A DNA stretch of 64,000 nucleotides, taken from positions 1 to 64,000 of the forward strand of contig JANWWK010000004.1 in the NCBI GenBank assembly GCA_025056175.1, read 5' to 3'. Shown here piece by piece: positions 42,972 to 60,600 of the stretch; positions within the stretch are counted from its first letter, which is position 1; the number at the start of each line of letters is the position of its first letter. A program made the position numbers and the translations under genes. Under the pieces are notes generated by a model, which was given only the letters and a program-made list of their open reading frames with translations, made no database searches and had not been told where the DNA came from. This DNA is from Anaerolineales bacterium. Its GTDB lineage: Bacteria; Chloroflexota; Anaerolineae; Anaerolineales; Villigracilaceae.

Positions 42972-43937
42972 CTAGAGGCTCGTCAGTTTCAGCCACAAGC
43001 CCGGAATGCGGCTGAGTTTGCCCCAGGAAGAGAGATTGGCTCGTTTGGAAAAGACATCGTAATCGTTGGCTTCGATGGCATCCAGAATGCCCTGATAGAA
43101 AGTGGATGCTGCGCCGATGGCAAGCTGACCGTCCCGTTCCAGAAAACGGATGCCTTTTTCGGATTCGGCGTAGAGCGCACGTGTGCGCTCAATTTGGAAC
43201 TTCATGAAGGCGCGCCATTTGTCGTTGACAATGCCACGTGCTAAATCTCTCTCGGTGATGCCGTAGGCTTTGAGCTCGTCTTTGGGGAGGTAAACGCGCC
43301 CGTTGCGGTAATCTTCGCCCACGTCACGCAAAATGTTGGTCAGTTGTAGCGCAACGCCCAGCTTAATCGCGTAGGGGAGAGCATCATTCGATTTGAATCC
43401 CACGATGTACATACTCATCAGGCCGACGGTGGAGGCGACGCCATAGCAATACGTAGCCAGGTCATCGAAGTTTTTATAGCGAGTTTGTGTGATGTCGCGC
43501 GCCACGCCGTCAATCAGTTGCAAAGCGTATCGAGAGGGGATGTGATAGCGGTTGCGTGTATCGGCCCACGCTTGCGCCACCAGGTCGTCGGGACGAGGAT
43601 GCAAAATTCCCTGTGCGACGCCACGCCAGTAATCCAGTTCCGCGTCGCGGCCTACAATCGAGCCTTCATCTACGATGTCATCCACTGTGCGGCAGAAGGC
43701 ATACAAGGCGCGCGCCGCAGAGCGTTTTTCTTCTGGCAGCAGGCCGCTTGCAATGTAGAAGGACTTGCTGTGATGAGCGGCAATCTGTCCGCACAGTTCA
43801 TAGGCTTTTTCGAGCGAGGCGTCGCCTGCCCAGTATGAGTAGACAGGACGGGTGGACGGGTGCGGAACATTTCCGGCCAGGTCAATCAAATGTCGTTCCC
43901 AGTGTGCCTGCATGGCTGCCTCCATCAGGGTTTGCAT
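42972..43937 (-). CDS. crtB: Phytoene (squalene/phytoene) synthase
   Basis: 321 residues. Two Asp-rich motifs bind the diphosphates: RTVDDIVDEG and DVGEDYRNGRVYLP. SKSFYIASGLLPEEKR is the usual N-terminal motif. It condenses two geranylgeranyl diphosphates to phytoene, the first step of carotenoid synthesis; squalene synthase activity is less likely given the linked crtI. It is transcribed away from crtI from the shared promoter region, and CAGGA lies just before the ATG. Divergent placement with a B12-type repressor gene downstream of crtI suggests light control. Confidence 0.92.
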   Translation of the reverse strand: MQTLMEAAMQAHWERHLIDLAGNVPHPSTRPVYSYWAGDASLEKAYELCGQIAAHHSKSFYIASGLLPEEKRSAARALYAFCRTVDDIVDEGSIVGRDAELDYWRGVAQGILHPRPDDLVAQAWADTRNRYHIPSRYALQLIDGVARDITQTRYKNFDDLATYCYGVASTVGLMSMYIVGFKSNDALPYAIKLGVALQLTNILRDVGEDYRNGRVYLPKDELKAYGITERDLARGIVNDKWRAFMKFQIERTRALYAESEKGIRFLERDGQLAIGAASTFYQGILDAIEANDYDVFSKRANLSSWGKLSRIPGLWLKLTSL

Positions 43938-43980: not shown

Positions 43981-43999
43981 GGTTTTGCAAGGAAAAATC
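43961..43999. promoter_or_regulatory. Interrupted inverted repeat centred between the crtB and crtI promoters
   Basis: Left arm GATTTTT-(TATA)-CCTTG and right arm CAAGG-AAAAATC are complementary around an 11-base centre. It touches the -35 of crtB on one side and ends at the -35 of crtI on the other. A regulator could control both promoters from here; a CarH-like protein is the obvious candidate. Confidence 0.55.
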
Positions 44000-44027
44000 T
44001 TGACAAATAATGGACAAAGGCTATAAT
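44000..44027 (+). promoter_or_regulatory. Promoter of the crtI operon with an 11-bp repeated motif
   Basis: TTGACA (44000-44005) and TATAAT (44022-44027) are exact matches spaced by 16 bases. TGGACA (44011-44016) repeats the -35 word exactly 11 bases later. CarH of Thermus is known to bind 11-bp direct repeats of the form TnnACA over the -35, so this is a candidate CarH operator. Confidence 0.7.
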
Positions 44028-44072: not shown

Positions 44073-45608
44073 ATGGCTTCTAAACCCACCGCAATTGTGA
44101 TAGGCGCCGGCATTGGTGGCATTGCGACTGCTGCCCGACTGGCGAAAAACGGTTATAGCGTGACCGTCCTCGAGAAGAACGCCCAAGCCGGCGGACGCTG
44201 CAATCAGATTGTTCGAGAGGGTCATCGTTTTGATATTGGCCCCACTTTGTTTCTGATGCCCGAAGTGTGGGAGGAGACCTTTCAGGCGTTGGGAGAGCGC
44301 ATGAGCGACCATCTCGACCTGCGCCGGATTGACCCGACCTATAAAGTCCACTTTGAGGATGGATTGCAATTACAACTGACATCCGACATTGGTAAGATGC
44401 AAGACCAGTTAGAGGCGGTGGAGAAGACGGCCTTTACCGGTTTTTTGAGTTACATTGCAGAAGGTGCCAGGCATTACAAAATTTCCCTGGAAAAGTTCGT
44501 AGGACGCAACTTCTATAGCCTGTTGGAGTATTTCAGCCTGAGCAACCTACCGCTCATCTTTCAACTCAAGGCACTGGATAAGCACTACCGTAACACCAGC
44601 CGCTATTTCAAAGATGAACGGCTCAAGGCGGCATTTACGTTCCAGAATATGTATCTCGGCCTGAGTCCCTACGATGCCCCGGCTACCTATTCTCTGCTTC
44701 AGTATACCGAGCTGGCAGAAGGGGTGTGGTATCCGATGGGCGGTATGTATGCGGCCATTCAGGCGCTCACGCGGATTGCCGAAAAATTGGGTGTTCGCTT
44801 TATTTACAATGCGCCCGTCAAAACCATCCAGGTGCAGGGTTCACAGGTCTTGTTTGTTGAGACGGAAGATGGCGCGCGCTACGCCGGCGATATTTTTGTC
44901 GGAAACGCGGACTTGCCTTATATCTATGACCAGCTTTTGCCCGACCGCGCCGAAGCCCGCAAACTGGACGAAAAACTTTATACCTGCTCCACCATCATGT
45001 TTTACTGGGGTGTGGACAAACAATATCCTCAAATTGCTCATCACAACGTCTTTCTGGCGGGCGATTACAAAGCCTCGTTCGACCGTATTTTCCAGGACCA
45101 TACTTTGCCGGATGCGCCCTCGTTCTATGTCCACGCGCCAGCGCGTACTGACCCGGCCGCTGCCCCTGCCGGTCAGGATACTTTATATGTTCTCGTGCCG
45201 GTCGGTCATCTGGATGCTCGCACCCGGCAAGATTGGGACGCGATGGTGAAACGCGCGCGGGAAACCGTTTTTGCCCGCCTGGAAAAAGAAATGGGCATTA
45301 ACGACCTGCGCGAACACATCAAATTTGAAATCACGTATACTCCGCTTACCTGGCAGCAGCAATTCAATCTGCAAAAGGGCGCGGCCTTTGGTTTGAGCCA
45401 TAACTTCTGGCAGGTCGGCTATTTGCGCCCGCATAACCGTCACGCAAAATACAGGAATCTGTATTTTGCGGGCGCATCCACCCACCCCGGAACCGGCCTG
45501 CCGATTGTTCTGCTCTCGGCGCGCCTGACAACTGAGCGAATCTTGAAAGAAAAGGGTACAATTTCTGTGCAAAAGCCATCCACCGTTGCAGCGGCAGCCA
45601 CAGATTAA
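44073..45608 (+). CDS. crtI: Phytoene desaturase, CrtI family
   Basis: 511 residues from the ATG at 44073, eight bases after AAGGAG; an ATG two codons earlier is too close to that site. AIVIGAGIGGIATAARLAKNG is the FAD-binding loop and VLEKNAQAGGRCNQ follows as in CrtI. The C-terminus has GASTHPGTGLPIVLLSARLT, the family signature. It introduces double bonds into phytoene to give neurosporene or lycopene. First gene of the long plus-strand operon. Confidence 0.93.
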   Translation: MASKPTAIVIGAGIGGIATAARLAKNGYSVTVLEKNAQAGGRCNQIVREGHRFDIGPTLFLMPEVWEETFQALGERMSDHLDLRRIDPTYKVHFEDGLQLQLTSDIGKMQDQLEAVEKTAFTGFLSYIAEGARHYKISLEKFVGRNFYSLLEYFSLSNLPLIFQLKALDKHYRNTSRYFKDERLKAAFTFQNMYLGLSPYDAPATYSLLQYTELAEGVWYPMGGMYAAIQALTRIAEKLGVRFIYNAPVKTIQVQGSQVLFVETEDGARYAGDIFVGNADLPYIYDQLLPDRAEARKLDEKLYTCSTIMFYWGVDKQYPQIAHHNVFLAGDYKASFDRIFQDHTLPDAPSFYVHAPARTDPAAAPAGQDTLYVLVPVGHLDARTRQDWDAMVKRARETVFARLEKEMGINDLREHIKFEITYTPLTWQQQFNLQKGAAFGLSHNFWQVGYLRPHNRHAKYRNLYFAGASTHPGTGLPIVLLSARLTTERILKEKGTISVQKPSTVAAAATD

Positions 45609-45627
45609 TTCCCCATTGGAGATTTCG

Positions 45628-46944
45628 ATGCCCATCAGCAAAACTCCTGCGTTCAATCTTAAAGTCGTCTTGCGCGAAACCGGCCTGGCAGCCGATACGC
45701 TGCGTGCCTGGGAACGGCGCTATGGCCTGCCTGTTCCTGAACGCACGCCTGGCGGTCATCGCCTGTACTCGCAATACGACATCGAAACCATCAAATGGCT
45801 GATGGCGCGTCAGAATGAAGGATTGAGCATTTCCCGCGCGGTAGAACTCTGGAAAGATGAGGTTGCCAAAGGACGTGACCCACTGGCCCAAGTCGATACC
45901 CGTCCGGTGACGAGTCTTTCCACCTTTCAACAGCCGATTTTTCTGCCCCCGGAGACGAATATAGATGCGATTCGTTCGCATTGGCTGGCGGCCTGTCTGA
46001 ACTTCAACGAGCATGCCGCTGAACAGGCGCTTAATCAGGCTTTTGGTCTGTATCCGGTCGAAACGGTTTGTACCGAAGTGTTGCAGCGCGGCATGGCCGA
46101 ACTGGGGATGTTGTGGTATGAAGGCCGCGCTTCGGTTCAGCAAGAGCATTTCGCTTCCGGGCTTGCCATGCGGCGGCTGGACGCTTTACTGGCGGCGGCA
46201 CCGCTTCCAACGCGTTCAAAGACTATCCTGGTGGGGTGTCCACCGGAGGAATGGCACACCTTTTCTATTCTTCTGCTCACGCTGTTTTTACGGCGGCGTG
46301 GTTTGAACGTCATTTATCTGGGCGCAAACGTGCCGGTTTCCCGGTTCGAGGAAACCGTCTCAATGGTCAAAGCCGACCTGGTTTTGCTGGCTGCACATCA
46401 CCTGGTAAGCGCCGCGACCTTACAGCAAACGGCTTTACAACTGTCGGCGCAAGGCGCACGGGTGGTCTATGGCGGTCGTATTTTCAACCTGCATCCATCG
46501 TTGCATTATCGCATTCCCGGTCATTTTCTTGGGGAACGTCTCGATTCGTCTATCGAAAGTGTTGAGCGATTGCTGGCTGCCTTTCCGCAACCGGCTTTTG
46601 AGAGCGCGCTTTCAGAAGAGTACACTGCAGCCTTACGGGCTTTTCTCATCAACCGCCCATTGGTCGAGGCGGCAGTGAATCGGCATTTCCAGATTTCGGA
46701 GATGCCGCCTGCCTATCTGGAAACGGCTAACCGTTACATGGGCAATAACATTGCCGCCGCGCTCCAGCTGGGCAACATCGCATATCTGGATAGCGAGCTG
46801 GAATGGCTGCACCAGATGCTGGTCAGCCATCGGCGCGATACGCAAACCGTGCGCGAGTATCTGGCGTATTACACCGAAGCGCTGGAGCGGAACCTGCCCC
46901 CCCAGGCGTCGTTTGTCGTCTCCTGGATGAAGACCAAATCCTGA
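45628..46944 (+). CDS. MerR-family B12-dependent photoreceptor repressor, CarH/LitR-like, with C-terminal extension
   Basis: 438 residues. MerR winged helix at about 10-80 (LRAWERRYGLPVPERTPGGHRLYS). The helical B12-cap carries W163-x9-E173-H174, the light-sensor W-x9-EH motif of CarH, and the cobalamin fold has E208-x-H210, so H210 is the probable lower ligand. Two deviations: Tyr164 stands where Thermus CarH has His132, the ligand formed after light, and Ser213 replaces the Gly of the D/E-x-H-x-x-G motif. About 120 residues (320-438) extend beyond the usual CarH length of about 290. Expected to repress crt genes in the dark when adenosylcobalamin is bound. Confidence 0.88.
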   Translation: MPISKTPAFNLKVVLRETGLAADTLRAWERRYGLPVPERTPGGHRLYSQYDIETIKWLMARQNEGLSISRAVELWKDEVAKGRDPLAQVDTRPVTSLSTFQQPIFLPPETNIDAIRSHWLAACLNFNEHAAEQALNQAFGLYPVETVCTEVLQRGMAELGMLWYEGRASVQQEHFASGLAMRRLDALLAAAPLPTRSKTILVGCPPEEWHTFSILLLTLFLRRRGLNVIYLGANVPVSRFEETVSMVKADLVLLAAHHLVSAATLQQTALQLSAQGARVVYGGRIFNLHPSLHYRIPGHFLGERLDSSIESVERLLAAFPQPAFESALSEEYTAALRAFLINRPLVEAAVNRHFQISEMPPAYLETANRYMGNNIAAALQLGNIAYLDSELEWLHQMLVSHRRDTQTVREYLAYYTEALERNLPPQASFVVSWMKTKS

Positions 46945-46951
46945 ATTTGCC

Positions 46952-47806
46952 ATGATGCTTAAAAACAGAATTATCGTCATCACCGGTTCTACACGTGGGC
47001 TTGGTTTCGCTACCGCAAAAGCCTGTCTGGCGGCAGGGGCGACGGTTGTCCTGACGGGCAGAAATCCACAGGCAGTGGAGCAGGCGCTCACGGAACTGCA
47101 CTCGCCAGACCGTACCGCCGGCTTTCTGGTGGATGTGCGTGATGAGGCACAGGTGCATCGTCTGGCTCATCAGACCATCGAACGCTTTGGCCGCTTTGAT
47201 ATATGGATTAATAACGCGGGTTACTCTTCGGCGGCTGGGATGATTCTCGATATGAATCCCCGTGAGGCGCTTGACATGTTTCTGGCAAATGACCTTGGCG
47301 CTCTCTATGGAACGCAAGCCGCCATGAGCCATTTTCTCCCGCGTCAGACGGGCACTCTGGTCAATATCTATGGAAATGGTTCTTTTCTACGCCCTGCGAC
47401 GCCGGTTGCTCTTTATGGCGCGACCAAAGCGTGGTTGACTTCTTTTACGCGCTCCCTCGCCAGAGAAACGGCTGGAAGCGGTATCCGCATTGTGGGTTTC
47501 AGCCCTGGCATGATGACCACCGAGATGCTCACTCGTCCGCGCGTGGTAGGCCAGAAAGCGCATGAACAAATGGAAAATTTCGGCTTTGTGCTGCGTTTTC
47601 TCAGTCAGCCACCAGAAATTCCGGCTCGCAAGCTGGTGCAGCTGCTGGCCTCGCAGCAGGCAGGCTTTGTCGAATACCAGATGTTCAAACCCTGGACGCC
47701 TTTGCTGGGCCTTATCCGTCTGGGCTGGGAAAATCTCACCAAAACCGCCCGAACGCCGACTCTTGTGATGCAGGATGAACCGGCCTACCGTTTTGAGCCA
47801 AAATAG
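46952..47806 (+). CDS. Short-chain dehydrogenase/reductase
   Basis: 284 residues. VITGSTRGLGFATAKACLAAG is the NAD(P)-binding T-G-x3-G-x-G loop, INNAGYSS the N-N-A-G motif and ALYGATKAWL the Y-x3-K catalytic pair. It begins 8 bases after the carH-like gene. Role in the carotenoid locus unknown; oxidation or reduction of a carotenoid end group is possible. The next stop-to-start distance is 13 bases, so it is in the operon. Confidence 0.88.
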   Translation: MMLKNRIIVITGSTRGLGFATAKACLAAGATVVLTGRNPQAVEQALTELHSPDRTAGFLVDVRDEAQVHRLAHQTIERFGRFDIWINNAGYSSAAGMILDMNPREALDMFLANDLGALYGTQAAMSHFLPRQTGTLVNIYGNGSFLRPATPVALYGATKAWLTSFTRSLARETAGSGIRIVGFSPGMMTTEMLTRPRVVGQKAHEQMENFGFVLRFLSQPPEIPARKLVQLLASQQAGFVEYQMFKPWTPLLGLIRLGWENLTKTARTPTLVMQDEPAYRFEPK

Positions 47807-47819
47807 AGAGGAGCTTTCT

Positions 47820-48194
47820 ATGACGAAAATTAACATTGGCCGTATCAACGACTTTGAGATTGGCAAACCGCGCGTTGTACGCGCAGGCGGTGCGACGATT
47901 GTTGTCAATCGCACCGAAAACGGGTTTTGCGCCGTCGCCAATCATTGTCCGCACCTTGGTTTGCCGATTGCCGGTGGCAAGATTGAGGGCAACGTTATCA
48001 CCTGTCCGTTTCACGGCAGTCGCTTCGATATGTGTACCGGCGAAAACCTGGATTGGGTCACCAGTTTTGCTGGCGCCAAACTGCCCGAATGGTCGCGCCG
48101 CCTGGTGGCGATGGGCAAAAAACCCACTCCCATCGAGACATTTGCGGTGACGCTCGAAAATGAAAATGTCTTTGTGACCATCCCAACCGCATAA
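47820..48194 (+). CDS. Rieske 2Fe-2S protein
   Basis: 124 residues from the ATG at 47820, preceded by GAGAGGAG. C-P-H-L (CPHLGLPIAGG) and C-P-F-H-G (CPFHGSRFDMCTGE) give the two Cys-His pairs of a Rieske cluster. Ferredoxin-like size, with no membrane segment, indicates a soluble electron carrier. In this locus it is a candidate electron donor for the P450 or for an oxygenase acting on carotenoids. This link is only by neighbourhood. Confidence 0.92.
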   Translation: MTKINIGRINDFEIGKPRVVRAGGATIVVNRTENGFCAVANHCPHLGLPIAGGKIEGNVITCPFHGSRFDMCTGENLDWVTSFAGAKLPEWSRRLVAMGKKPTPIETFAVTLENENVFVTIPTA

Positions 48195-48211: not shown

Positions 48212-49432
48212 ATGAATAAACAACTCTTCTCGGTCTTCCTCATCGTCTTCATTGACCTGCTCGGTTTCAGCCTGATTTTGCCGCTGCTGCCTTACTATGC
48301 CGAAACCTTTGGCGCAAATGAGTTCGTCACCGGCTTGCTGGTGGCTTCGTATGCTGCCATGCAGTTGATTGGCGCGCCCATTTTAGGGCGGCTCTCCGAC
48401 CGGTTTGGACGCCGTCCTATTCTGCTGGTCAGCATCTTTGGCACGTTTCTGGGTTTTCTGCTGCTCGGTTTCGCCAACGCACTGTGGATGCTCTTCGCCA
48501 GCCGCATTCTGGATGGTTTTACCGGTGGCAACCTGAGCGTGGCGCAGGCCTATATTGCCGATGTGACCGATGAGAAAAATCGTTCCAAAGGCCTGGGGCT
48601 GGTTGGCGCGGCCTTTGGGCTGGGGTTCATCATTGGCCCGGTCACGGGCGGTTTCCTCAGCCAGTGGGGATACGCATTCCCGGCCTTTGCCGCTGCCGCG
48701 CTGGCTTTTGTGAACCTGGTTCTGGTGGGCTTCTGGCTGCCCGAATCGTTGACCCCTGAAAAACGCGCCGCCATGCCCGAAAAACGGCCCCCGGTGACAC
48801 TGGCCGCTCTTCTTCAGGCGCTGCGGCGTCCCTTTACCGGCCCTCTGCTGATTACCCGCTTTTTCTTCGGGCTGGCATTTGCCATTTTCCAGACCATTTT
48901 CGCGCTCTACGCGCTCAAAAAGTTTCAACTTGATGCCCGTCAGACCGGCCTGGTGCTGACGTTTGTGGGCGTCCTGTCGGTCTTCGTGCAGGGCTTTCTG
49001 ATAGGTCGTCTGACCCGCCGCTTCCGCGAGGATGTTTTGATTGTTGTTTCCGTGATTGTCATGGCTTTGTCTTTGTTGGGCTGGGCGGCAGCCCCGTCTG
49101 TGGTCTGGCTACTGGTCGTTCTCGTCCCAACGGCCTTTGCTGGCGGTGTGCTGAATACTGTCCTTGCCAGTACGTTGACCAAAGCAGTCGCCCCCCACGA
49201 GGTTGGCGGCATTCTCGGCCTGGCTGCCTCCATCGAGAGCCTGACGCGCGTCCTGGCTCCCACGCTGGGCGGCGCATTGCTCGGAGAATGGGGCACCTGG
49301 TCGCCGGGTGTCTTTGGCGGCGTGCTTCTCCTGGTGTTGAGCGTGTATGTTGCGCGCGTCATTTACAATCACCCTCTCGCTGCTGAGATTCACGCCCGCA
49401 AGGATGCAACCCCTGCTCCCGTCAGCCACTGA
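48212..49432 (+). CDS. Major facilitator superfamily transporter (DHA1/TetA-like)
   Basis: 406 residues, twelve membrane segments. GRLSDRFGRRPILLVS is the loop 2-3 motif of the superfamily and GLVGAAFGLGFIIGPVTGG the motif C region of antiporters. The best general match is the tetracycline-type proton antiporters, but nothing points to an antibiotic; with carotenoid genes on both sides a lipophilic or pigment-related substrate is conceivable. It is followed by five heptamer repeats before the next gene. Confidence 0.88.
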   Translation: MNKQLFSVFLIVFIDLLGFSLILPLLPYYAETFGANEFVTGLLVASYAAMQLIGAPILGRLSDRFGRRPILLVSIFGTFLGFLLLGFANALWMLFASRILDGFTGGNLSVAQAYIADVTDEKNRSKGLGLVGAAFGLGFIIGPVTGGFLSQWGYAFPAFAAAALAFVNLVLVGFWLPESLTPEKRAAMPEKRPPVTLAALLQALRRPFTGPLLITRFFFGLAFAIFQTIFALYALKKFQLDARQTGLVLTFVGVLSVFVQGFLIGRLTRRFREDVLIVVSVIVMALSLLGWAAAPSVVWLLVVLVPTAFAGGVLNTVLASTLTKAVAPHEVGGILGLAASIESLTRVLAPTLGGALLGEWGTWSPGVFGGVLLLVLSVYVARVIYNHPLAAEIHARKDATPAPVSH

Positions 49433-49435
49433 TGA

Positions 49436-49470
49436 CTGCTCACTGCTCACTGTTCACTGTTCACTGCTCA
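49436..49470. repeat. Five tandem heptamers, consensus CTGYTCA, ending at a start codon
   Basis: CTGCTCA, CTGCTCA, CTGTTCA, CTGTTCA and CTGCTCA run without gaps from just after the MFS stop codon. The last A is the A of the ATG of the CrtI-like gene, so no Shine-Dalgarno sequence precedes that gene. The same heptamer fills the space before the SDR gene at 53193. Confidence 0.85.
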
Positions 49471-50915
49471 TGCACGTCCTCATCATCGGCGCCGGCATTG
49501 GCGGATTGACCACCGCCGCCCTCCTGCTCAAGCAGGGCTGGCGGGTGACGGTCCTGGAAGCCGGAACTTACCCCGGTGGCTGCGCCGGAACGTTTTTTCA
49601 CAAAGGCTACCGTTTCGACGCGGGCGCGACCCTGGCCGGTGGTTTCGACCCCGCCGGGCCGCATACCCGCGTGGCCGAAATTCTTGGCCTGGAATGGCCG
49701 GTGACGCCCATCCCCGATGCCGCCTGGGTGACGCACCTGCCCACCGAATCCGTCTATCAGTGGGTGGACCCGGCCCGCTGGCGCGAAGAGTACCTTACCA
49801 GATTCCCTTTTTCGGCGCGCTTCTGGCAAAAGCAGGAACAACTCGCCAGAATCGCCTGGGACATCGCCTCCCGCGACTTCCCCTGGCCGCCCGCCACCAT
49901 CGCCGAAGCCCTGCGCCTGCCGCTGGCCCTGCGCCCGGAGACGTTGGCCGCTGCGCCGTATCTCTTCCGCAAAGTGCGCCATCTCCTGCCGCGCGAGACC
50001 ACCCCGGCCTTCAAAGCCTTTGTGGATGGCAACCTGCTGATTTCGGCTCAGGCCATCAGTGACCACGCCGACGCGCTCTATGGCGCATCGGTGCTGGATT
50101 TGCCTCGCCGGGGCGTGATGCACGTGCGCGGCGGCATGGGCGCGATTGCGGAAACGCTCGTCTCGTGGATACAGGCCAATGGCGGCGAGGTGAAATACCG
50201 TCAGCGGGTGACGCACCTCGAAACGGCCAACGGGCGGGTGCGGGCGGCGGTAACAGCCAGGCAAATGCGCTTCGAGGCCGACGTGTTCCTCGCCAACCTG
50301 ACCCCCTGGGGTTTGGAAGCGCTGCTCGGCGAAGCCGCGCCGGGCAACCTGCGGCGGGAGACATGCTCCCGGCCCTGGATGTGGGGCGCCTTTGTTGTCC
50401 ACGCCGGGGTGCGGGCCGAGAAAATCTCCACATCCATCACCCATCATCAGGTGATTGTGGATGTGAACCAACCGCTCGGCGAGGGCAATTCGGTCTTTAT
50501 TTCGCTTTCGCCGCTCGATGACCCCTCCCGCGCCCCGGCAGGCATGCGCGCCGCCATTCTCTCGACCCACACGCGCATTGCCGATTGGCAGGGACTGGAC
50601 GAGGCCGCTTACGAAGAACGCAAGGCGGTTTACACCCAAAAAGTGCTGACTGCCGCCGAGCGCGCTCTGCCGGGTTTTCGCGCCGCCGCCGAACTTGTCC
50701 TGCCCGGCGCGCCACACACCTACGAGTTCTACACCCGCCGCCCGTTTGGCATGGTCGGCGGCTTCCCGCAGACTTCACTCTTCGCCGCGCGCGGCCCGCA
50801 GACCGGCTTCGGCAATCTGTGGTTGGTGGGCGATAGCATTTTCCCCGGCCAATCTACCGCCGGGGTGACGCTCGGCGCAATGCGCGTGGCGAGGCTGGTG
50901 AACGGAAAAAGTTAA
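49470..50915 (+). CDS. CrtI/CrtD/CrtH-family carotenoid oxidoreductase
   Basis: 481 residues from the ATG at 49470. VLIIGAGIGGLTTAALLLKQG is the FAD loop and GGCAGTFFHKGYRFDAGATL the region typical of the CrtD/CrtH/CrtO branches. C-terminal VGDSIFPGQSTAGVTLGAMR closes the family. It may be a carotenoid desaturase at C-3,4, an isomerase or a ketolase; the sequence alone does not decide. It is not a second phytoene desaturase by obvious similarity to the crtI upstream. Third-position C is more frequent than in crtI. Confidence 0.82.
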   Translation: MHVLIIGAGIGGLTTAALLLKQGWRVTVLEAGTYPGGCAGTFFHKGYRFDAGATLAGGFDPAGPHTRVAEILGLEWPVTPIPDAAWVTHLPTESVYQWVDPARWREEYLTRFPFSARFWQKQEQLARIAWDIASRDFPWPPATIAEALRLPLALRPETLAAAPYLFRKVRHLLPRETTPAFKAFVDGNLLISAQAISDHADALYGASVLDLPRRGVMHVRGGMGAIAETLVSWIQANGGEVKYRQRVTHLETANGRVRAAVTARQMRFEADVFLANLTPWGLEALLGEAAPGNLRRETCSRPWMWGAFVVHAGVRAEKISTSITHHQVIVDVNQPLGEGNSVFISLSPLDDPSRAPAGMRAAILSTHTRIADWQGLDEAAYEERKAVYTQKVLTAAERALPGFRAAAELVLPGAPHTYEFYTRRPFGMVGGFPQTSLFAARGPQTGFGNLWLVGDSIFPGQSTAGVTLGAMRVARLVNGKS

Positions 50916-50938: not shown

Positions 50939-51514
50939 ATGCAAAAAGACCTTCTCAGTAATTTTTTTGGCAAATTGATGCCACTCTTTCCTCCACGCAC
51001 CGAGGCCTTTCTCAAGAGCGCCAGGCGCGAAGACCTCAACCGGGTCAATTTTCGCTACATCTTCACCGTGCAGGGGATGGTCGAAATCAGTCACATGATT
51101 GAAGATGCCATTGTTGCCAGCCCGGGCGTTTCTGAAACGCACGTTTCGTTTCAATACTTCTCCCGTGTGGCCGACCAGGAAGAGCGCTATCACCGCGTTG
51201 CGCAGGCTTCGGTGGGTTTGTGGCTGTATGGCGTTCCCGATAAACCCCTCCCGAATTTTGTTCGCACGACAGCGGTGGATACCAGCAATACTCCTTTGGA
51301 AAACTACTGGTTCGTGATTGCTTACGGACCGGGAATCCACATGACTCTGCTGGCAGAAGAAATCAATCCTGGCGACCGGCTGCCTGGCGAACCGCGCATG
51401 TACGAGGGGTTTTACACGTTTGACCCTAACTTTGCGTATAAGGTCATCACCGTCATGCACAAACTTTTCCCGGAACAGGTGAACGTGCCAACCCTGCCGG
51501 AATTGTTAGAGTAA
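50939..51514 (+). CDS. Stand-alone DICT sensory-domain protein
   Basis: 191 residues, AGGAG before the ATG. The stretch from about residue 75 to 180 matches the DICT domain as I know it: SFQYFSRVADQEERYHRVAQ, LWLYGVPDKPLP, NYWFVIAYGPG and MYEGFYTFDPNFAYKV. DICT domains occur in cyanobacterial light-response and signalling proteins, usually fused to other domains; here the protein has no partner domain. The first ~50 residues are a basic N-terminal region of unknown kind. Neighbour genes suggest a sensory or accessory role in the light response, which is inference. Confidence 0.7.
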   Translation: MQKDLLSNFFGKLMPLFPPRTEAFLKSARREDLNRVNFRYIFTVQGMVEISHMIEDAIVASPGVSETHVSFQYFSRVADQEERYHRVAQASVGLWLYGVPDKPLPNFVRTTAVDTSNTPLENYWFVIAYGPGIHMTLLAEEINPGDRLPGEPRMYEGFYTFDPNFAYKVITVMHKLFPEQVNVPTLPELLE

Positions 51515-51529
51515 ACCGCGAGACCCGCA

Positions 51530-52171
51530 ATGGCCGAGACCAGCCTGACCCGTTACGAGCTGCCTCCTCAGGGAATCACCCTGCTCGGCTACATCGCGCG
51601 CCGGATGCACAAGACCCGCCTGCTCGTTCCGATAGCGGGAATGCTCTCAGCGGGGAACTCTGCCGCCGCGCTGGAGCAGGTTGCCTGGTATGCGGCAGCC
51701 GCTTCGGTTTCGTATGGCCCGGCCTATTACCAGCCGCGTTTCAACCGCCTGGGCGAGGAGCTGGTCGAAGCCGACCCGGCCACCGGCTGGGATGTGTGGG
51801 CGCGGCTCGAAGCTGTCTCTCCGCATTATCTGATTGCGTATCGCGCCCTCGCCCCCGATGGCAGCGCGGTTTTCAGCGGGCGGGAGGAAATCACTGGCAC
51901 CACCATCGGCCTGCGCGGACTGGGCATGCCCGCCCCCTCGAAATTCCATTTCACCTGTGGCGGCTACCAGGCCACGCTGACCGGTGTCATCACCAGCGAA
52001 CTGGTTTTGTCGCTGTTCGGCCCTACCCGCATTCGCGCGCATGGTTTCCTGAACCTGGCCGATAGCGCAGGCAACAGCGGAAAACTTCGCCTTGACCGGC
52101 GCGGCAAACTGACTCTTGAAATCAACGGTCAGCCGCCCATCATGTATGCCCTCGACCAGGACACGAACTGA
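51530..52171 (+). CDS. Conserved-looking hypothetical protein of the photoprotection locus
   Basis: 213 residues, 15 bases after the DICT gene and one base before uvsE. No family is recognised. It has no signal peptide or membrane segment; there are few Cys, and the C-terminal half looks beta-rich (LRLDRRGKLTLEING). Codon use resembles its neighbours and no overlapping frame competes, so it should be a real gene. A weak GCGAGA is the only ribosome-binding candidate. A role with the DICT protein or repair is possible by position. Confidence 0.6.
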   Translation: MAETSLTRYELPPQGITLLGYIARRMHKTRLLVPIAGMLSAGNSAAALEQVAWYAAAASVSYGPAYYQPRFNRLGEELVEADPATGWDVWARLEAVSPHYLIAYRALAPDGSAVFSGREEITGTTIGLRGLGMPAPSKFHFTCGGYQATLTGVITSELVLSLFGPTRIRAHGFLNLADSAGNSGKLRLDRRGKLTLEINGQPPIMYALDQDTN

Positions 52172-52172
52172 C

Positions 52173-53066
52173 ATGCGGATTGGCTATCCCTGCGTTTCAC
52201 GGCTGACCGGGCGCACCACCAACCACGAAACCATCCTGCGCGCCGCCACGCCCGAAAAACTGCGCGCTCTCGCCCGCCAAAACCTGGCTGACCTGCGCGA
52301 AATTCTGCGTCACAACCTGGCGCACGGCTGGCTGCTCTTTCGGATTGGTTCGAGCGTTATTCCCTTTGCCTCGCACCCGGTCAACACGCTCAATTGGCAG
52401 GCAGAATTTCGAGATGAGTTGACCGACATCGGCGCTTTTGCGCGTCAGCACGACATGCGGCTCTCTTTCCACCCCGGGCAGTACACCGTTTTGAACTCGC
52501 CCGACCCGGAAATTGTCCGCCGCGCCATCGAAGAAATTGCTTACTCTGCCGCCTTTCTCGATGCGCTGGGGATGGATACCACCTGCAAAATCGTCATCCA
52601 CCTGGGTGGAACGTATGGCGACAAACCCGCCGCGCTGGGCCGCTTCGTCGAGACGGCGACCACCCTGCGCGACTCCCTGCGCCGCCGCCTGGTCATCGAA
52701 AACGATGAGCGTTGCTACGCCCCGGCGGATGCGCTCTGGGTGTCAGAACGCACCGGGTTACCGGTCGTCTTCGACAACCTGCACTATGCCGCCAACCCCG
52801 GCCCCGGCGCGCTCGATGACCTGCTGGCGCGAGTCTTTGCCACCTGGAAACCCGCCGATGGCGTCCCGAAGGTACATTTTTCCTCGCAAGCCCCTGGCAG
52901 CCGGCCCGGTCACCACGCCGACTACGCCCACCCGGACGAATTCCGTGACTGGCTGGTGCGCTGGTCTCGTTTTGGCGATTTTGACCTGATGCTTGAAGCC
53001 AAAGCCAAAGATGCCGCCCTCCTCGCCCTCTCCCCCGACCCTCTGACCCTGCTCCCTGCTCCCTGA
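52173..53066 (+). CDS. uvsE: UV damage endonuclease UvsE/UvdE
   Basis: 297 residues from the ATG at 52173. The barrel motifs of UvdE are clear: MRIGYPCVS start, FRIGSSVIPFASHP, LSFHPGQYTVLNSPDP, IVIHLGGTYGDK, IENDERCYAPADAL, VVFDNLHYA and VHFSSQAPG with HHADYAHPDEF. Metal ligands (His and Glu/Asp) lie in these segments. The enzyme nicks DNA 5' of UV photoproducts and needs no light. It is 120 bases before the next SDR gene and 700 before photolyase, so light-independent and light-dependent repair are side by side. Confidence 0.95.
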   Translation: MRIGYPCVSRLTGRTTNHETILRAATPEKLRALARQNLADLREILRHNLAHGWLLFRIGSSVIPFASHPVNTLNWQAEFRDELTDIGAFARQHDMRLSFHPGQYTVLNSPDPEIVRRAIEEIAYSAAFLDALGMDTTCKIVIHLGGTYGDKPAALGRFVETATTLRDSLRRRLVIENDERCYAPADALWVSERTGLPVVFDNLHYAANPGPGALDDLLARVFATWKPADGVPKVHFSSQAPGSRPGHHADYAHPDEFRDWLVRWSRFGDFDLMLEAKAKDAALLALSPDPLTLLPAP

Positions 53067-53192: not shown

Positions 53193-53825
53193 ATGCCCTC
53201 AACCCTCCTCTGGGGCGCCGCCGGTGGAATCGGCAAAGCTCTGACCCAACAACTGACTGCCTCCGGCCACATGGTGGTTGCCGTCTCCCGCCATCCCGCC
53301 GAAATGAAAGCCCTCACGCCGCACGTTATCGCGGCAGATGTCACCCAACCGGCGCAGGTCAGCGCCGCCGCGCGCATGGCCGCCGGCATGGGCGCGCCCT
53401 TCGACCTTTTCATCTACGCCGCTGGCGACATCGCCTCGCTCAAAACCGCCGAAATGACCCCCGCTGACTGGAATCGGATACTCTCGGCTAACCTGACCGG
53501 CGCGTTTCTGACCGCGCAGGCCAGCCTGCCGCACCTGAAAGCCGATGCCCGCCTGGTCTTCATCGGCGCGGTGCATGAACGTCTGCGCCTGCCGGGTCTC
53601 TCGGCCTACGCCGCTGCCAAAGCCGGCCTGGAAGCCTTCGCCGAAGTCCTGCGCAAAGAAACCCGCCTGCCCGTCCTCGTCGTCCGCCCCGGCGCAGTGG
53701 ATACGCCTTTTTGGAAAAAAGTGCCGTTTTCCATGCCCAAAAACGCCCTCAGCCCGCAAACGCTGGCCGAAAAGATACTGACCGCGCTCGAAGAAGATAA
53801 AACCGGCATGCTTGATATTGGGTAA
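53193..53825 (+). CDS. Short SDR-family oxidoreductase
   Basis: 210 residues with GGAG six bases before the ATG. LLWGAAGGIGKALTQQL is a shortened NAD(P) loop, YAAGDIASL replaces the N-N-A-G region and SAYAAAKAGLEAFAEVL holds Y-x3-K. It is shorter than the SDR at 46952 and unlike it in detail, so not a recent duplicate. Carotenoid end-group or general redox role unknown. Confidence 0.85.
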   Translation: MPSTLLWGAAGGIGKALTQQLTASGHMVVAVSRHPAEMKALTPHVIAADVTQPAQVSAAARMAAGMGAPFDLFIYAAGDIASLKTAEMTPADWNRILSANLTGAFLTAQASLPHLKADARLVFIGAVHERLRLPGLSAYAAAKAGLEAFAEVLRKETRLPVLVVRPGAVDTPFWKKVPFSMPKNALSPQTLAEKILTALEEDKTGMLDIG

Positions 53826-53886: not shown

Positions 53887-55398
53887 ATGACCTCTCTCTG
53901 GTGGATTCGCCGCGACCTTCGTCTCTCCGATAACCCGGCCCTGCACGCAGCACTCAAGCACGGGCCGGTTATCCCTGTTTTCATCCTCGACCCGCATCTG
54001 CTGGAACGTACCCCGGCGCGCCGCCAGCATTTCCTGTTCGGCGGGCTGGCCGAGTTGGACGCCGAACTCAAAAAACGCGGTTCTGGTCTGGTGATTCGGC
54101 GCGGCAAGCCAGAAATCGAACTCCTGAACCTCATCATCGAAACCGGCGCGCAGGCCATCTTTGCCGAAGAAGACTACACCCCCTACGCCCGCGCCCGTGA
54201 CGAGCGCATCGCCGATTCTCTGCCTCTGACCCTCGTCCACGGGCAAACCGTTCATCATCCTGCTTCGGTGGTCAAACCGGATGGCAGCCCATACACCGTC
54301 TTTACCCCCTTCAGCAAAGCCTGGAAAGCCCTGCTGCCCGCCAGCCTGACCCCGCTCCCCGCGCCGGAACATTTCCCCCCCGTCACCCTGCCTGCTTCCA
54401 CTCCTGCCCTCCGTTTCTCTGATTCATCCGCTGTCGAATCCGTTTCTCCGCCTGACTCCGTTTCCGCTCTCCGTTTCTCCGATTCATCCGCTGTCGAATC
54501 CGCTTCTCCGCTTGATTCCGTTTCCGCCCCCCGTTTCTCCGATTCATCCGCTGTCGAATCCGCTCTCTTTCTTCCTGGCGAAAAAGAAGCCCAGCGCCGC
54601 CTGTACCAGTTCACCAAATCAAAAAATCAAAAAATCACCCGATACCACGAAACCCGCAACCGTCTCGACCTGGATGGCACGTCGGCTCTTTCGCCCTACA
54701 TCCGCTTTGGCATGATTTCCATGCGCCAGGCCGCATCTGCTGCCATTCAGCAAATCGCCTCTCCCACCGCGCGAGAGACTGGGGGCGAGGGCGCCACCGC
54801 CTGGCTCAACGAGCTCATCTGGCGTGAATTCTACATTGCCATTCTCTACCACTTCCCTCACGTCAGCAAAACAGCCTTCAACCCGGCGCTGGCGAACATC
54901 CCCTGGCGGAATAACGAAACCGAATTTGAAGCCTGGAAAGAGGGACGTACTGGCATTCCAGTTGTAGATGCTGCCATGCGCCAGTTGCGGGCCACCGGCT
55001 GGATGCACAACCGCGCCCGCATGATTGTTGCATCTTTTCTGGTCAAAGATTTGCTGATAAACTGGCAGTGGGGCGAACGCTGGTTCATGGACAACCTGCT
55101 GGATGGCGACCCCGCCGCCAACAACGGCGGCTGGCAGTGGACGGCTGGCACCGGCACCGACGCCGCGCCCTATTTCCGCATCTTCAACCCCGTGCTGCAG
55201 AGCCAGAAGTTCGACCCGCACGGCGACTACATTCGCAAATGGGTTCCCGAACTCGCCCATTTGCCCCCTGAAAGCATCCACGCCCCCTGGGAAAAGCGCC
55301 TTCGCATCCCTGGCTATCCCTCCCAACCCATCGTTGACCGCGAAAAAGCCCGCGAACGCACCCTGAAAGCCTATTCCCTGTCCAAAACCGTCTTCTAA
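53887..55398 (+). CDS. phrB: Class I DNA photolyase with a repeat-expanded linker
   Basis: 503 residues. [17 protein letters not shown] starts the alpha/beta antenna-binding domain. The FAD domain has [46 protein letters not shown] and [14 protein letters not shown], the residues that bind FAD and the pyrimidine dimer. It splits cyclobutane dimers using blue light. The linker between the domains (about 174-226) is an imperfect 20-residue repeat absent from ordinary photolyases. It ends only 42 bases before the P450 gene. Confidence 0.96.
54406..54564. repeat. In-frame 60-bp tandem repeat inside photolyase (about 2.6 copies)
   Basis: The units begin at 54406, 54466 and 54526 and encode [21 protein letters not shown]-like 20-residue blocks. 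They are nearly identical in DNA, so the expansion is recent. The repeat is a multiple of three and leaves the frame intact. Confidence 0.9.
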
Positions 55399-57550: not shown

Positions 57551-57661
57551 GCGATAACTGCTCATTTGAAAACCCTTCGATACCCCGCCTGGCGAACTGA
57601 CATCAGGTGTGCTATCCTCGCCAAAACGCTCCTCAGCACAGAAAATCGGAAAGCCGTCTCG

Positions 57662-60600
57662 ATGTCCACCTCTCTTGCCTCCAAACAATTTCTCACGATT
57701 GGGGTTTTGGCTGGCTGGCAATTTTACCGTACCGCCACCACGCTCAGCTACCTGGAACCTATTTTTCGGGGAATTTCTCACGCGGCACAAACCCTGCGTT
57801 GCCATCTTTTGCTTGCCTGTGGAATTGGCCCTTCGGCCAGCCCAGGCGACCCCTACCGACCGGCCTGGCCGATACCTTCTGCCGAACACGACTTTGTGCC
57901 GGTTGGCCCCTGGAATACCGATGGCCTGATTGTCGTCCCCCCGCTTCACTCTTCAGAGCGTTCGGCCTATATCGAAAAACTGCGCCTTTCTGGCTTCCCG
58001 ATTTTCTTCATTGGCTCTGGCGAAATTGGTCCCACCCTGTTGGCCGACAATGCTTCTGGCATTCGGCAGGCAGTCCAGCACCTGGCCGAACACGGGCGGC
58101 GCAAAATTGCCTTCATCGCCGGTTCGCCCGACGACCTGACCGGTGATTCCGGAGAACGGTTGCACGCCTTTCAGCAGGCCTGTCGTCACTTTGGTCTGGA
58201 ACAAGACCCCCGCCGCGTCCTGTATGGTCGCCACGTGTACGATGGCGGTTTTGCCGCTGCTCAACAATTTTTGCAGAGCGGTGTTCAATTCGATGCGCTT
58301 CTTGCCAGCAATGACGAATCGGCAATTGGGGCAATACATGCCCTTCGGCAAGCCGGGCGACGCATTCCCGAGGATGTGGCGGTGATTGGCTTCGATAACC
58401 GCCTGGAAGGGGCGGTACAACAGCCTGCGCTCACCAGTGTTCATATCCCGCTTTTCGAAATGGGGGTTCAGGCGACGCATGAACTCTGGCGTCATTTGAC
58501 CGAAGGTGTTCCTTTGCCCGAACGCCGGCGGGTTGAAACTCATCTGGTTGTGCGTCAGTCGTGTGGTTGTGGAGGCAGTCACGTCGCCAGAGTTTCCTCC
58601 TCAGCCGCATCCCTTGGCGCAGAAATTTGCGCTTACATTCATCCGCAGGTCTATGGCTTGCGTGAGCAAGACCTTTCCACCTTCAGCCACCGCCTGGTCG
58701 AAACCTTTGAGCAGAGTCTTTCCCAGGGGAACCCAATTGCCTTTCGTGCCGCACTGGAGGAGATTCTTACCCGTACCGTTCAATCCGGTGACGACGCGCA
58801 TCTGTGGCAGGAAGCGCTTTCGTTCCTCTCCAAAAGCCCGGTGTGGAAGCAACACCCACAAATGGCTGCCACCTTGCTCGATGAAGCCCGCCTCACCATT
58901 AGCGCACGAATGCGGGACGCTCACCGCCAACATGTTCTGGAAGAACGCTGGACGTTTAGCCGCCTCAGTCTGCTGACAGCCCGCCTGCTCACTGTGTTGG
59001 ATGAAGCCCAGGTGTACGACGTGCTGGCAAGTCATCTCCCCGAATTTGGCATTCAGACCGCCCTGGTTGCGCTCTTTGAGCCGGAAGGACAAGAACGTTT
59101 GGGTTGGAGCGTTCTTCGCGATGCCCTCAATCCTCGCCAGCCGCTCCTGCGTCTCCGCCCCCAACAATTTCCTCCCCCCACCCTGCTGACAGCAGAGCGG
59201 CCTTTCTCGCTTGCGCTTGTTCCCATCACCGACCAGACCGGCCAAATTGGTTTTATGGCGTTGGATACTGCACGCCTCGACCTGCATGGCGCAATTGTGC
59301 AGCAACTTGGCAGCGCACTCAACACAGTGCGCCTTTACCGTCAGGCTACCGAGGCCCGCCGTGCTGCTGAAGAAGCCAACCGGCTCAAAAGCCGTTTTCT
59401 CTCCACCATCAGCCACGAACTTCGTGCGCCGCTTCATCTGATTGTTGGTCTCAGTGGCCTGTTGTTGGATGAAAACGAAGCGCAGAGCGCCTCCCTGCCC
59501 GAATCGGCGCGCCGCGACATCGAACGTGTCCATGCTTACGCTCAACATTTAGGCGGCCTGATAAATGATGTGATTGACCTGGCCTCCAGCGGGGCCGGAC
59601 AGCTGCGTCTGCAATACGAACCACTGGATTTGACCGATACGTTACGGATTGTGGCCGAAAGCGGTGCCCAGATGGCACAAGATAAGGGCTTGACCTGGCG
59701 CGCCGACCTGCCGGAACAACCAGTTTGGGTGTGGGGGGACCGCACTCGTTTGCGTCAGGCCGCGCTTAACCTGGTCAGCAATGCCATCAAATTCACGCCG
59801 CGTGGTGAGGTACGGCTTTCTCTTCAGTGTACCGGCGGTCAGGCGCGCGTCGAGGTCAGTGATACGGGGCCGGGCATCCCTCCCCAGGAGCAAACGCGCA
59901 TCTTCGAGGCCTTTCATCGCACTGAGCGCAGTGTTGCCGAAGGTCAGCCTGGCCTGGGGTTAGGACTGACCATTTGCAAAATGCTGGTTGAAATGCACGG
60001 CGGTCAGGTGGGTGTTTCTTCCAGCGGCCTGCCGGGCGAAGGCGCTTGTTTCTGGTTCACCCTGCCAGAAATTTCTCCCGCTTCCCGGCAGCCAGCCCCT
60101 GCGGCCTCGTCCGAAAAAAAGGTGTTATTCCTGTTTCAATCACCTCTTGACCTGCCGCATTTGACCGAACGACTGGCTGGACAGAACATTCGCGTGCTGA
60201 GCGCTCCGCTGGCTCGCCCAGCCGATTGGCAGGCTTTGCTGGCGGTCTCTCCGCCTCAGGCCATTGCACTGGAAATCGAAGGTCAACCCGGCCTTGCCTG
60301 GCGGGCCATGCAGACGATTAAGAGTTTGCCTTCGGCTCAGGACATCCCCATCCTGTTTTATGCCGTCTCGGACCAGGGGGAAGCCTTGCTCAGCCTGGAC
60401 TACCTCACCAAACCTGTTGAGCCGGAGACTTTGCTTCGCGCTCTGGATGAAAATTTGCCTCCTGCTGAAACAGTCTCTCAACAGGTGCGTACTTTTCTGG
60501 CTGTGGATGACGATTTGTCTGCTCTGGAAATGTATGCCCGTATTTTGCGTTTACATAGCCCATCCAATCGTGTGTTGGCTGCCCAAAATGGTCACCAGGC

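What the first reader, a model, noticed from the sequence alone, without database searches (positions are those of the whole stretch)
50939..51514. Free-standing DICT domain protein inside a photoprotection operon
DICT domains are usually parts of multidomain signalling proteins and have been tied to light response by genome context. A single-domain copy co-directional with photolyase and carotenoid genes is a simple case in which the function of the domain could be found.
Basis: inference. Interest (0 to 1): 0.62.

Follow-up and report, generated by a model that had tools for sequence, protein, structure and literature searches.

The report
Free-standing DICT protein beside CarH-like regulator
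A small sensor-like protein of unknown function is encoded in one gene cluster with pigment, DNA-repair and vitamin-B12-binding regulator genes in Anaerolineae bacteria; in the genomes examined from its family it never occurs without that regulator, so this is a good place to learn what the protein does.

Summary
The finding holds. ORF 50939-51514 matches Pfam DICT (36.3 bits, cut-off 23.8; no other Pfam family) and is the genome's only DICT. It is the seventh gene after a divergent crtB/crtI promoter, in a run with crtI, a CarH-like MerR-B12 regulator, UvsE, photolyase and lycopene cyclase. A scan found 43 orthologous loci in Chloroflexota (42-92% identity). The steady companion is the CarH-like regulator: 30 of 30 DICT genomes among 150 of the family (57 of the 120 others), 15 of 15 further ones, 40 of 43 in 400 phylum genomes (96 of 357 others). 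Eleven of 11 DICT frames of 703-927 aa in family f25 end in a CarH-type B12 domain. The predicted fold resembles TrmB's sensor domain and phospholipase D, without the HKD motif. Best reading: a non-catalytic sensor acting in trans with the CarH-like regulator. Contact, ligand and function are unproven; 57 of 87 regulator genomes lack DICT, and four DICT haloarchaea lack CarH. Single-domain DICTs are not rare; DICT-B12 fusions seem to be in print.

The parts
50939..51514 (+). free-standing DICT protein, 191 aa
   Evidence: PF10069 36.3 bits; 43 orthologous loci; dN 0.053, dS 1.50 against L116; AlphaFold2 pLDDT 91.5, phospholipase-D-like fold
45586..46944 (+). CarH-like regulator (MerR HTH + B12-binding_2 + B12-binding + C-terminal part, of which the last 107 aa have no Pfam match); ATG start probably 45631
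43996..44017 (+). two tandem 11-bp CarH-type direct repeats (nnnnTnnACAn) over the -35 box (44000-44005) of the crtI promoter; -10 TATAAT at 44022-44027
   Evidence: sequence; tandem motif in 28 of 34 crtB-crtI gaps, 0.6% of shuffled gaps; consensus from PMC9304148 and PMC8156234 (passages)
42972..43937 (-). phytoene synthase crtB (SQS_PSY), divergent
   Evidence: Pfam 269.9 bits
44010..45608 (+). crtI-family phytoene desaturase; real start probably near 44073
   Evidence: TIGR02734 513.9 bits, cut-off 238.1
46952..47806 (+). short-chain dehydrogenase
47775..48194 (+). Rieske ferredoxin-like protein
48212..49432 (+). MFS transporter
49347..50915 (+). CrtD/carotenoid-isomerase-like oxidoreductase; likely start 49467
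   Evidence: TIGR02733 336.7 bits, below its cut-off of 549.7
51530..52171 (+). 213-aa conserved protein of unknown family
   Evidence: no Pfam or NCBIfam match; relatives at 7 other DICT loci of 43 and at 9 of 20 carH loci without DICT
52116..53066 (+). UV damage endonuclease UvsE
   Evidence: TIGR00629 193.6 bits, cut-off 124.45
53193..53825 (+). short-chain dehydrogenase
53887..55398 (+). DNA photolyase
   Evidence: PF03441 293.1 bits
55440..56759 (+). cytochrome P450
56756..57550 (+). lycopene cyclase domain protein (CarR domain)
   Evidence: TIGR03462 106.1 bits, cut-off 39.4

Best explanation
The gene makes a soluble, single-domain DICT protein with a catalytically dead phospholipase-D-like fold of the kind that serves as effector-binding domain in the archaeal regulator TrmB. 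It is expressed from the crtI promoter together with the CarH-like B12 regulator and acts in trans with that regulator as a second input (small-molecule or protein binding) that tunes when the carotenoid/photolyase operon is switched on by light. Shown: DICT identity, gene order, co-occurrence with the CarH-like protein in Chloroflexota, DICT-B12 fusions in another family. Predicted: the fold. Inferred: co-transcription, action in trans, ligand sensing, effect on the CarH-like protein, light control of this operon.
For: Co-occurrence: 30 of 30 DICT genomes in 150 of the family have the CarH-like protein, against 57 of the other 120 (Fisher p 8e-9); 15 of 15 further DICT genomes, 9 of them without carH in the held stretch; 40 of 43 against 96 of 357 in 400 phylum genomes, or 37 of 39 against 99 of 361 if only DICT matches over the Pfam cut-off count. 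The link holds inside photolyase-positive (31 of 33 vs 41 of 78) and photolyase-negative (9 of 10 vs 55 of 279) genomes. Position: of 43 loci with neighbours called, DICT lies directly downstream of carH in 7 (three with four-base overlaps) and directly before phr (gap -7 to +20) in 16, while other neighbours change. Fusion: 11 of 11 DICT frames of 703-927 aa in family f25 end in a B12 domain with WHx8EH and ExHxxG; the one compared with the PDB hits Thermus CarH best. Operator: two tandem CarH-type repeats at the crtI promoter. Fold: models of two DICTs 23% identical both match TrmB (Z 11.1 and 10.6) and other chains that I recognise as PLD superfamily; HKD motif in 0 of 43 DICT rows, 20 of 20 PLD rows, 0 of 9 TrmB rows.
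Against: 57 of 87 family genomes with the CarH-like protein have no DICT, so DICT is dispensable for it. On a quick CarH tree DICT presence needs at least 14 changes and is not clearly clustered (102 of 500 shuffles as low). The operator repeats are as frequent at loci without DICT (13 of 16) as with it (15 of 18). Four DICT haloarchaea and one Methylacidiphilales genome have no CarH. 3 of 43 DICT Chloroflexota lack a match. Profile comparison gives no sequence support for PLD or TrmB kinship (probability at most 2.6; controls up to 1.6), no PDB sequence matches, and Foldseek's best E is only 3.8e-4. No complex was modelled. Genomes are related, so p-values overstate independence.
Confidence: 0.45

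Rival explanations
1. DICT is an antirepressor or feedback protein of the CarH-like regulator, working as CarS does on CarA in Myxococcus: it binds the repressor directly and no ligand is involved.
For: Encoded in the regulator's own cluster; strict co-occurrence; CarS precedent read in passages.
Against: DICT is fused to kinase, cyclase, STAS and GAF modules elsewhere, which fits an input domain better; CarS has an SH3 topology according to a reference title seen, not this fold.
Confidence: 0.2
2. DICT serves carotenoid metabolism, for example as a binding or delivery protein for the CrtD-like enzyme or another pathway enzyme, not signalling.
For: crtD-like gene at 16 of 44 DICT loci (window included), often adjacent, and at 0 of 20 carH loci without DICT that were fetched; also where carH lies elsewhere (L145, L146, L148, L150, L154).
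Against: Only 5 of the 30 DICT genomes of the family have the crtD-like gene at E<=1e-80, and 3 genomes have it without DICT; in one of these, G513, it lies on the carH contig about 2.2 kb from carH.
Confidence: 0.15
3. DICT regulates a second-messenger enzyme in trans: it pairs with the DICT-cyclase encoded next to it and sets cAMP/cGMP output; elsewhere it pairs with other DICT proteins.
For: DICT-cyclase gene at 6 loci, directly upstream of free-standing DICT in 4; shared predicted DICT fold.
Against: The window's genome has no second DICT; the cyclase was seen at only 5 of the 44 DICT loci and at L082.
Confidence: 0.1
4. DICT is a PLD-type nuclease or phosphodiesterase that helps DNA repair beside photolyase and UvsE.
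For: PLD nucleases NucT and Nuc are among the fold matches.
Against: HKD motif absent in all 43 rows; the invariant Trp124 falls on the catalytic Lys in a profile alignment that is itself not significant.
Confidence: 0.04

Closest known systems
DICT domain, Pfam PF10069 (Aravind, Iyer and Anantharaman 2010; reference seen in PMC8612252; original not read)
   Same: Profile match over the cut-off; invariant E55, W124, L137 and near-invariant S51, F71, Q72, S75 shared with DICT kinase, STAS and cyclase proteins.
   Different: Own subfamily: helical N-terminus, HVSFQ, YW in place of EW, YEGFYTF; linked to CarH-like genes.
CarH AdoCbl photoreceptor-repressors (Thermus, Myxococcus)
   Same: The neighbour in the cluster has MerR HTH + B12 domains, keeps Wx9EH, and tandem 11-bp repeats lie at the promoter.
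   Different: Tyr instead of the His next to the Trp, no Gly in ExHxxG, extra C-terminal part, NCBIfam score 148.6 against a cut-off of 400.
DICT-bearing light-responsive cobalamin-domain proteins (SignatureFinder, PMC11796333, Fig. 9 legend; passages and section 8 read)
   Same: DICT is spelled out in the legend of the network figure of putative light-responsive B12 proteins; the f25 fusions carry a B12 domain of that kind.
   Different: Here DICT is a separate protein; a find for Chloroflexi, Chloroflexota and Anaerolin in that paper's main text gave 0.
TrmB effector domain (2f5t, 3qph)
   Same: Predicted fold Z 11.1, rmsd 2.8 over 125 residues; no HKD motif in 43 DICT rows or 9 TrmB rows.
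   Different: No sequence kinship detectable; no DNA-binding domain.

Membership tests
DICT (PF10069) | Pfam score over the gathering cut-off | tested here: met
   36.3 bits against 23.8
DICT (PF10069) | conserved core residues of the family | tested here: met
   E55 and W124 in 33 of 33, S51 and F71 in 32 of 33, Q72 in 31 of 33 aligned DICT rows
CarH (for the neighbour 45586-46944) | MerR-type DNA-binding domain followed by B12-binding domains | tested here: met
   PF13411, PF02607, PF02310 over cut-off
CarH (for the neighbour 45586-46944) | Wx9EH motif | tested here: met
   present once; definition from PMC8156234
CarH (for the neighbour 45586-46944) | ExHxxG B12 motif | tested here: not met
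   EWHTFS: the His is there, the Gly is not; definition from PMC8156234
CarH (for the neighbour 45586-46944) | NCBIfam NF052513 cut-off | tested here: not met
   148.6 bits against 400
CarH (for the neighbour 45586-46944) | AdoCbl binding and light-induced loss of DNA binding | not testable with these tools
   needs purified protein
phospholipase D superfamily (fold) | PLD-like fold | tested here: met
   on predicted models only: best Z 11.1 and 10.6, and the 50 rows shown in each list are chains that I recognise as PLD superfamily (naming of PPK1, FAM83, F13 and others as such is recalled)
phospholipase D superfamily (enzyme) | HxKx4D catalytic motif | tested here: not met
   0 of 43 rows
TrmB regulators | detectable sequence homology of the effector domain | tested here: inconclusive
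   hhalign probability 0.16 and 0.11; shallow alignment of 9 haloarchaeal TrmB rows

The most novel reading that the evidence does not exclude
DICT, an orphan sensor domain since 2010, is a catalytically dead phospholipase-D-fold effector-binding domain, and in Chloroflexota it is a dedicated second input to AdoCbl photoreceptor signalling, working in trans as a free protein in CarH-like operons and in cis in DICT-B12 fusion proteins.
Probability: 0.3. Interest if true: 0.72.

Novelty: new variant of a known kind. Interest (0 to 1): 0.52.

Why it matters
A 2022 review names DICT among putative sensory domains with no discernible physiological purpose (PMC8846402, passage). Here is a single-domain copy with one steady genomic companion of a kind whose mechanism is known, and a recognisable promoter, so its role can be tested with one deletion, one gel shift and one ligand screen. 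If DICT feeds into B12 photoreceptors, that would give substance to the old light-response prediction (repeated in PMC8612252, passage) and offer a new part for green-light optogenetics.

Tried and rejected
Sequence kinship of DICT with PLD or TrmB: hhalign gave probability 2.6 at best (PLD, broad DICT profile), in the range of the controls (up to 1.6 among the rows printed, 30 control families run), while TrmB against PLD, as a positive control, gave 84. A PDB sequence search with the DICT profile gave 0 hits. I therefore claim only a predicted shared fold. PADLOC: no match.

CrtD as the constant partner: rejected on the genome counts. Photolyase as the constant partner: weaker than CarH-like. 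Rieske (10 loci), the second dehydrogenase (8) and uvsE (6) were, like crtD (16), seen at DICT loci but at none of the 20 carH loci without DICT; I did not test these further, and lineage may explain it.

The Tyr-variant CarH or its C-terminal part as a DICT-specific trait: rejected. All 20 carH loci without DICT also show a 438-472 aa protein with Wx9EH and Tyr or Phe after the Trp.

Hidden distant DICTs in DICT-negative family genomes: a profile of the subfamily found the same 30 genomes and no more. One weak Pfam match (G464, E 0.008, three stops) was dropped from the count of 30. One of the 30 (G515) has only the DICT-cyclase. In the phylum sample four of the 43 DICT genomes (G159, G295, G311, G355) are under the Pfam cut-off; my own DICT profile found no DICT in the stretches fetched from three of them (L233, L234, L235), so the cut-off-only figures are given too.

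DICT-cyclase model: only the DICT part is reliable (block means 85-97 over residues 31-130); the cyclase part is not.

Neighbour calls: L135 was left out of the 43 neighbour rows because an overlapping photolyase frame displaced its DICT in the automatic gene choice.

Papers: searches for 'DICT domain', 'DICT sensory domain', 'PF10069', DICT+carotenoid+sensory domain, DICT+GGDEF+light+sensor domain, DICT+MEDS+sensor, DICT+photolyase, TrmB+phospholipase D+sugar-binding domain+fold and CarH+Chloroflexi+adenosylcobalamin listed no report of a free-standing DICT in a CarH-like operon or of a PLD-like DICT fold; most subscription papers, and the 2010 chapter, are not held.

Full report
OBSERVATION. 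The ORF at 50939-51514 is a real gene: 191 aa, ATG start behind a GGAG, and under purifying selection against its nearest orthologue (dN 0.053, dS 1.50). It matches Pfam DICT with 36.3 bits (cut-off 23.8) over profile positions 25-128 of 129, and no other Pfam family at E<=1. The genome (3.57 Mb in 95 contigs) has no other DICT match.

SURROUNDINGS. The genes from crtI (44010) to the sensor hybrid at 57566-61198 lie on the + strand. Most gaps are short or overlaps (23 bases before DICT, 15 after); the largest is 126 bases, before the dehydrogenase at 53193. In order: crtI-type desaturase, CarH-like MerR-B12 regulator, short-chain dehydrogenase, Rieske protein, MFS transporter, CrtD-like oxidoreductase, DICT, a 213-aa unknown, UvsE, short-chain dehydrogenase, photolyase, P450, lycopene cyclase domain protein, then a LacI-type/kinase/receiver/AraC hybrid. 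Phytoene synthase is divergent upstream. A single transcript is an inference.

PROMOTER. The crtB-crtI gap holds TTGACA (44000-44005) and TATAAT (44022-44027), and two tandem 11-bp repeats nnnnTnnACAn at 43996-44017. This is the CarH operator repeat described in passages of PMC9304148 and PMC8156234. The tandem pair occurs in 28 of 34 crtB-crtI gaps extracted (15 of 18 at DICT loci, 13 of 16 at loci without DICT), in 0.6% of base-shuffled gaps, and at 4.06 per kb in the gaps against 0.054 per kb over the whole loci, gaps included. The papers give three repeats for Thermus CarH and four for CarHBm; here I see two. So the operon is probably under the CarH-like regulator, with or without DICT.

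ORTHOLOGUES AND THEIR NEIGHBOURS. A scan of the genome-contig collection with a subfamily profile returned 49 loci: 43 orthologues (42-92% identity, L116-L158), Anaerolineae or other Chloroflexota by the organism names in the titles (for Brevefilum recalled), and 6 distant DICTs (one Chloroflexaceae, four haloarchaea including one unnamed archaeon that I take for one, one Methylacidiphilales). In the window plus these 43 loci, the held stretch contains carH in 30, phr in 30, crtI in 26, crtD-like in 16, and at least one of crtI/carH/phr/crtD/lycopene cyclase/uvsE in 39; L129, L147, L149, L151 and L152 have none (some stretches are short contigs). Among 43 loci with neighbours called (L135 missed), DICT follows carH directly in 7 (L136-L142) and precedes phr directly (gap -7 to +20) in 16; elsewhere it follows crtD, an MFS gene, a DUF1295 gene, a DICT-cyclase or others. 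In this sample the neighbours shuffle while the cluster mostly stays.

CO-OCCURRENCE. In 150 genomes of the window's family, 30 have a DICT (29 a free-standing one; G515 only a DICT-cyclase) and all 30 have the CarH-like protein (E<=1e-20), against 57 of the other 120 (Fisher p 8e-9). G464 (E 0.008, stops inside) was not counted. The genomes of L144-L158, nine of them without carH in the stretch, all have it: 15 of 15. L129's genome was not tested. In 400 genomes across the phylum, 40 of 43 DICT genomes have it against 96 of 357 (p 1e-17), DICT of any architecture; with DICT over the Pfam cut-off only, 37 of 39 against 99 of 361. Photolyase as a general light marker: 33 of 43 against 78 of 357. 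Within photolyase-positive genomes the DICT/CarH-like link remains (31 of 33 against 41 of 78), and within photolyase-negative ones (9 of 10 against 55 of 279). These counts are not corrected for relatedness. Against generality: none of the four DICT haloarchaea, nor the Methylacidiphilales genome, has a CarH match at E<=1e-5; the Chloroflexaceae genome does. And 57 of 87 family genomes with the regulator have no DICT.

LABILITY. On a quick tree of 49 CarH-like proteins, DICT presence needs at least 14 changes, 7 of them forced by well-supported branches; the label is not clearly clustered (102 of 500 shuffles as low). DICT is therefore optional for the regulator, yet where it was found in this family the regulator was always in the genome. 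That fits an accessory input.

FUSIONS. In family f25, 11 of 11 DICT frames of 703-927 aa (L098, L111, L114, L115, L226-L232) carry a CarH-type B12 domain at the C-terminus with WHRGE(V/I)SVAxEH and E-x-H-E-(I/L)-G; shorter f25 DICT proteins have other partners, such as a histidine kinase or STAS. The two scanned with Pfam show a weak GAF match between DICT and B12 (E about 0.001, under the cut-off). The one compared with the PDB matches Thermus CarH 5c8a best. In L111 the next gene is a histidine-kinase-like protein. This links DICT and a B12 photoreceptor module in one chain, an argument independent of operon position. It is probably not new: DICT is spelled out in the legend of the network figure of putative light-responsive B12 proteins in PMC11796333 (passages read; figure not seen).

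DICT-CYCLASE. Six loci (L117, L118, L119, L127, L143, L082) also carry a gene for DICT plus a class III nucleotide cyclase, in four of them directly upstream of the free-standing DICT. Pfam confirmed the cyclase for three of the six genomes; the others cluster with these.

FOLD. AlphaFold2 with 43 rows gives pLDDT 91.5, pTM 0.88. Foldseek's five hits under 1e-3 (best 3.8e-4) are the PLD nuclease NucT and TrmB. The 50 VIA-align rows shown are chains that I recognise as PLD superfamily (partly recalled): polyphosphate kinase 1 Z 11.1 (149 residues, 3.4 A), TrmB sensor domain Z 11.1 (125 residues, 2.8 A), TrmBL2, NucT 9.9. The DICT half of the DICT-cyclase (23% identical to the window protein) gives a similar list, TrmB first with Z 10.6. 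Models without a clear match typically reach Z 7 to 8, by the tool's note. The catalytic HKD motif is in 0 of 43 DICT rows, 20 of 20 PLD control rows, 0 of 9 TrmB rows. Profile-profile comparison does not support kinship. So the fold is a consistent prediction from two models, not a proven descent. That TrmB's domain binds sugars is in the title of entry 2f5t.

THE PARTNER IS CarH-LIKE. It has Wx9EH, but Tyr where Thermus CarH has the His that becomes the upper ligand after photolysis (PMC8156234 legend), EWHTFS instead of ExHxxG, a C-terminal part whose last 107 aa have no Pfam match, and 148.6 bits against an NCBIfam cut-off of 400. Both motifs are said to define CarH, so I do not file it as CarH. 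The Tyr/Phe variant is also at all 20 carH loci without DICT that were fetched. A few relatives do keep the Gly, for example at L118 and L153.

MECHANISM. Most likely the DICT protein is a non-catalytic sensor or binding protein that works in trans with the CarH-like regulator. That it belongs to the same pathway I hold at about 0.8; the full statement, with action on or through the regulator, at about 0.45. The ligand is unknown. The mended counts did not require a change of odds.

STANDING. DICT domains, their link to light by gene context (passage), and DICT-B12 fusions are known in outline. Not found in the library with the searches: the free-standing subfamily in CarH-like operons, the phylum-wide tie to CarH-like proteins, and the PLD/TrmB-like fold.

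Noticed in passing
window 45631-46944: CarH-like regulator with Tyr in place of the His that ligates cobalt after photolysis in Thermus CarH, no Gly in ExHxxG and a C-terminal part of unknown family; all 20 carH loci without DICT that were fetched carry the Tyr/Phe form too. Its photochemistry may differ from CarH.
   Followed up: partly
window 51530-52171: 213-aa conserved protein without Pfam or NCBIfam match, at 8 of 44 DICT loci (window included) and 9 of 20 carH loci without DICT; at many of these just before photolyase.
   Followed up: partly
L117:8656-9948, L118:8637-9995, L119:8501-9829, L127:7197-8540, L143:8642-9949, L082:53-1336: DICT + class III nucleotide cyclase protein in the carotenoid/CarH-like cluster, a possible link of photoprotection to cAMP or cGMP.
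   Followed up: partly
window 57566-61198: 1210-aa hybrid: LacI-type ligand domain, histidine kinase, receiver and AraC helix-turn-helix in one protein at the end of the gene run.
   Followed up: no
L109:7000-8118 and 9073-10215: A DICT gene and a separate B12-domain gene (WAQGEISVGQEH, ELHEIG) on the same strand with one frame between them.
   Followed up: no
L144:7596-8126 and others (cluster c32): Small protein, no Pfam match for the one tested, near DICT or crtD-like genes at 8 DICT loci and none of the 20 carH loci without DICT.
   Followed up: no
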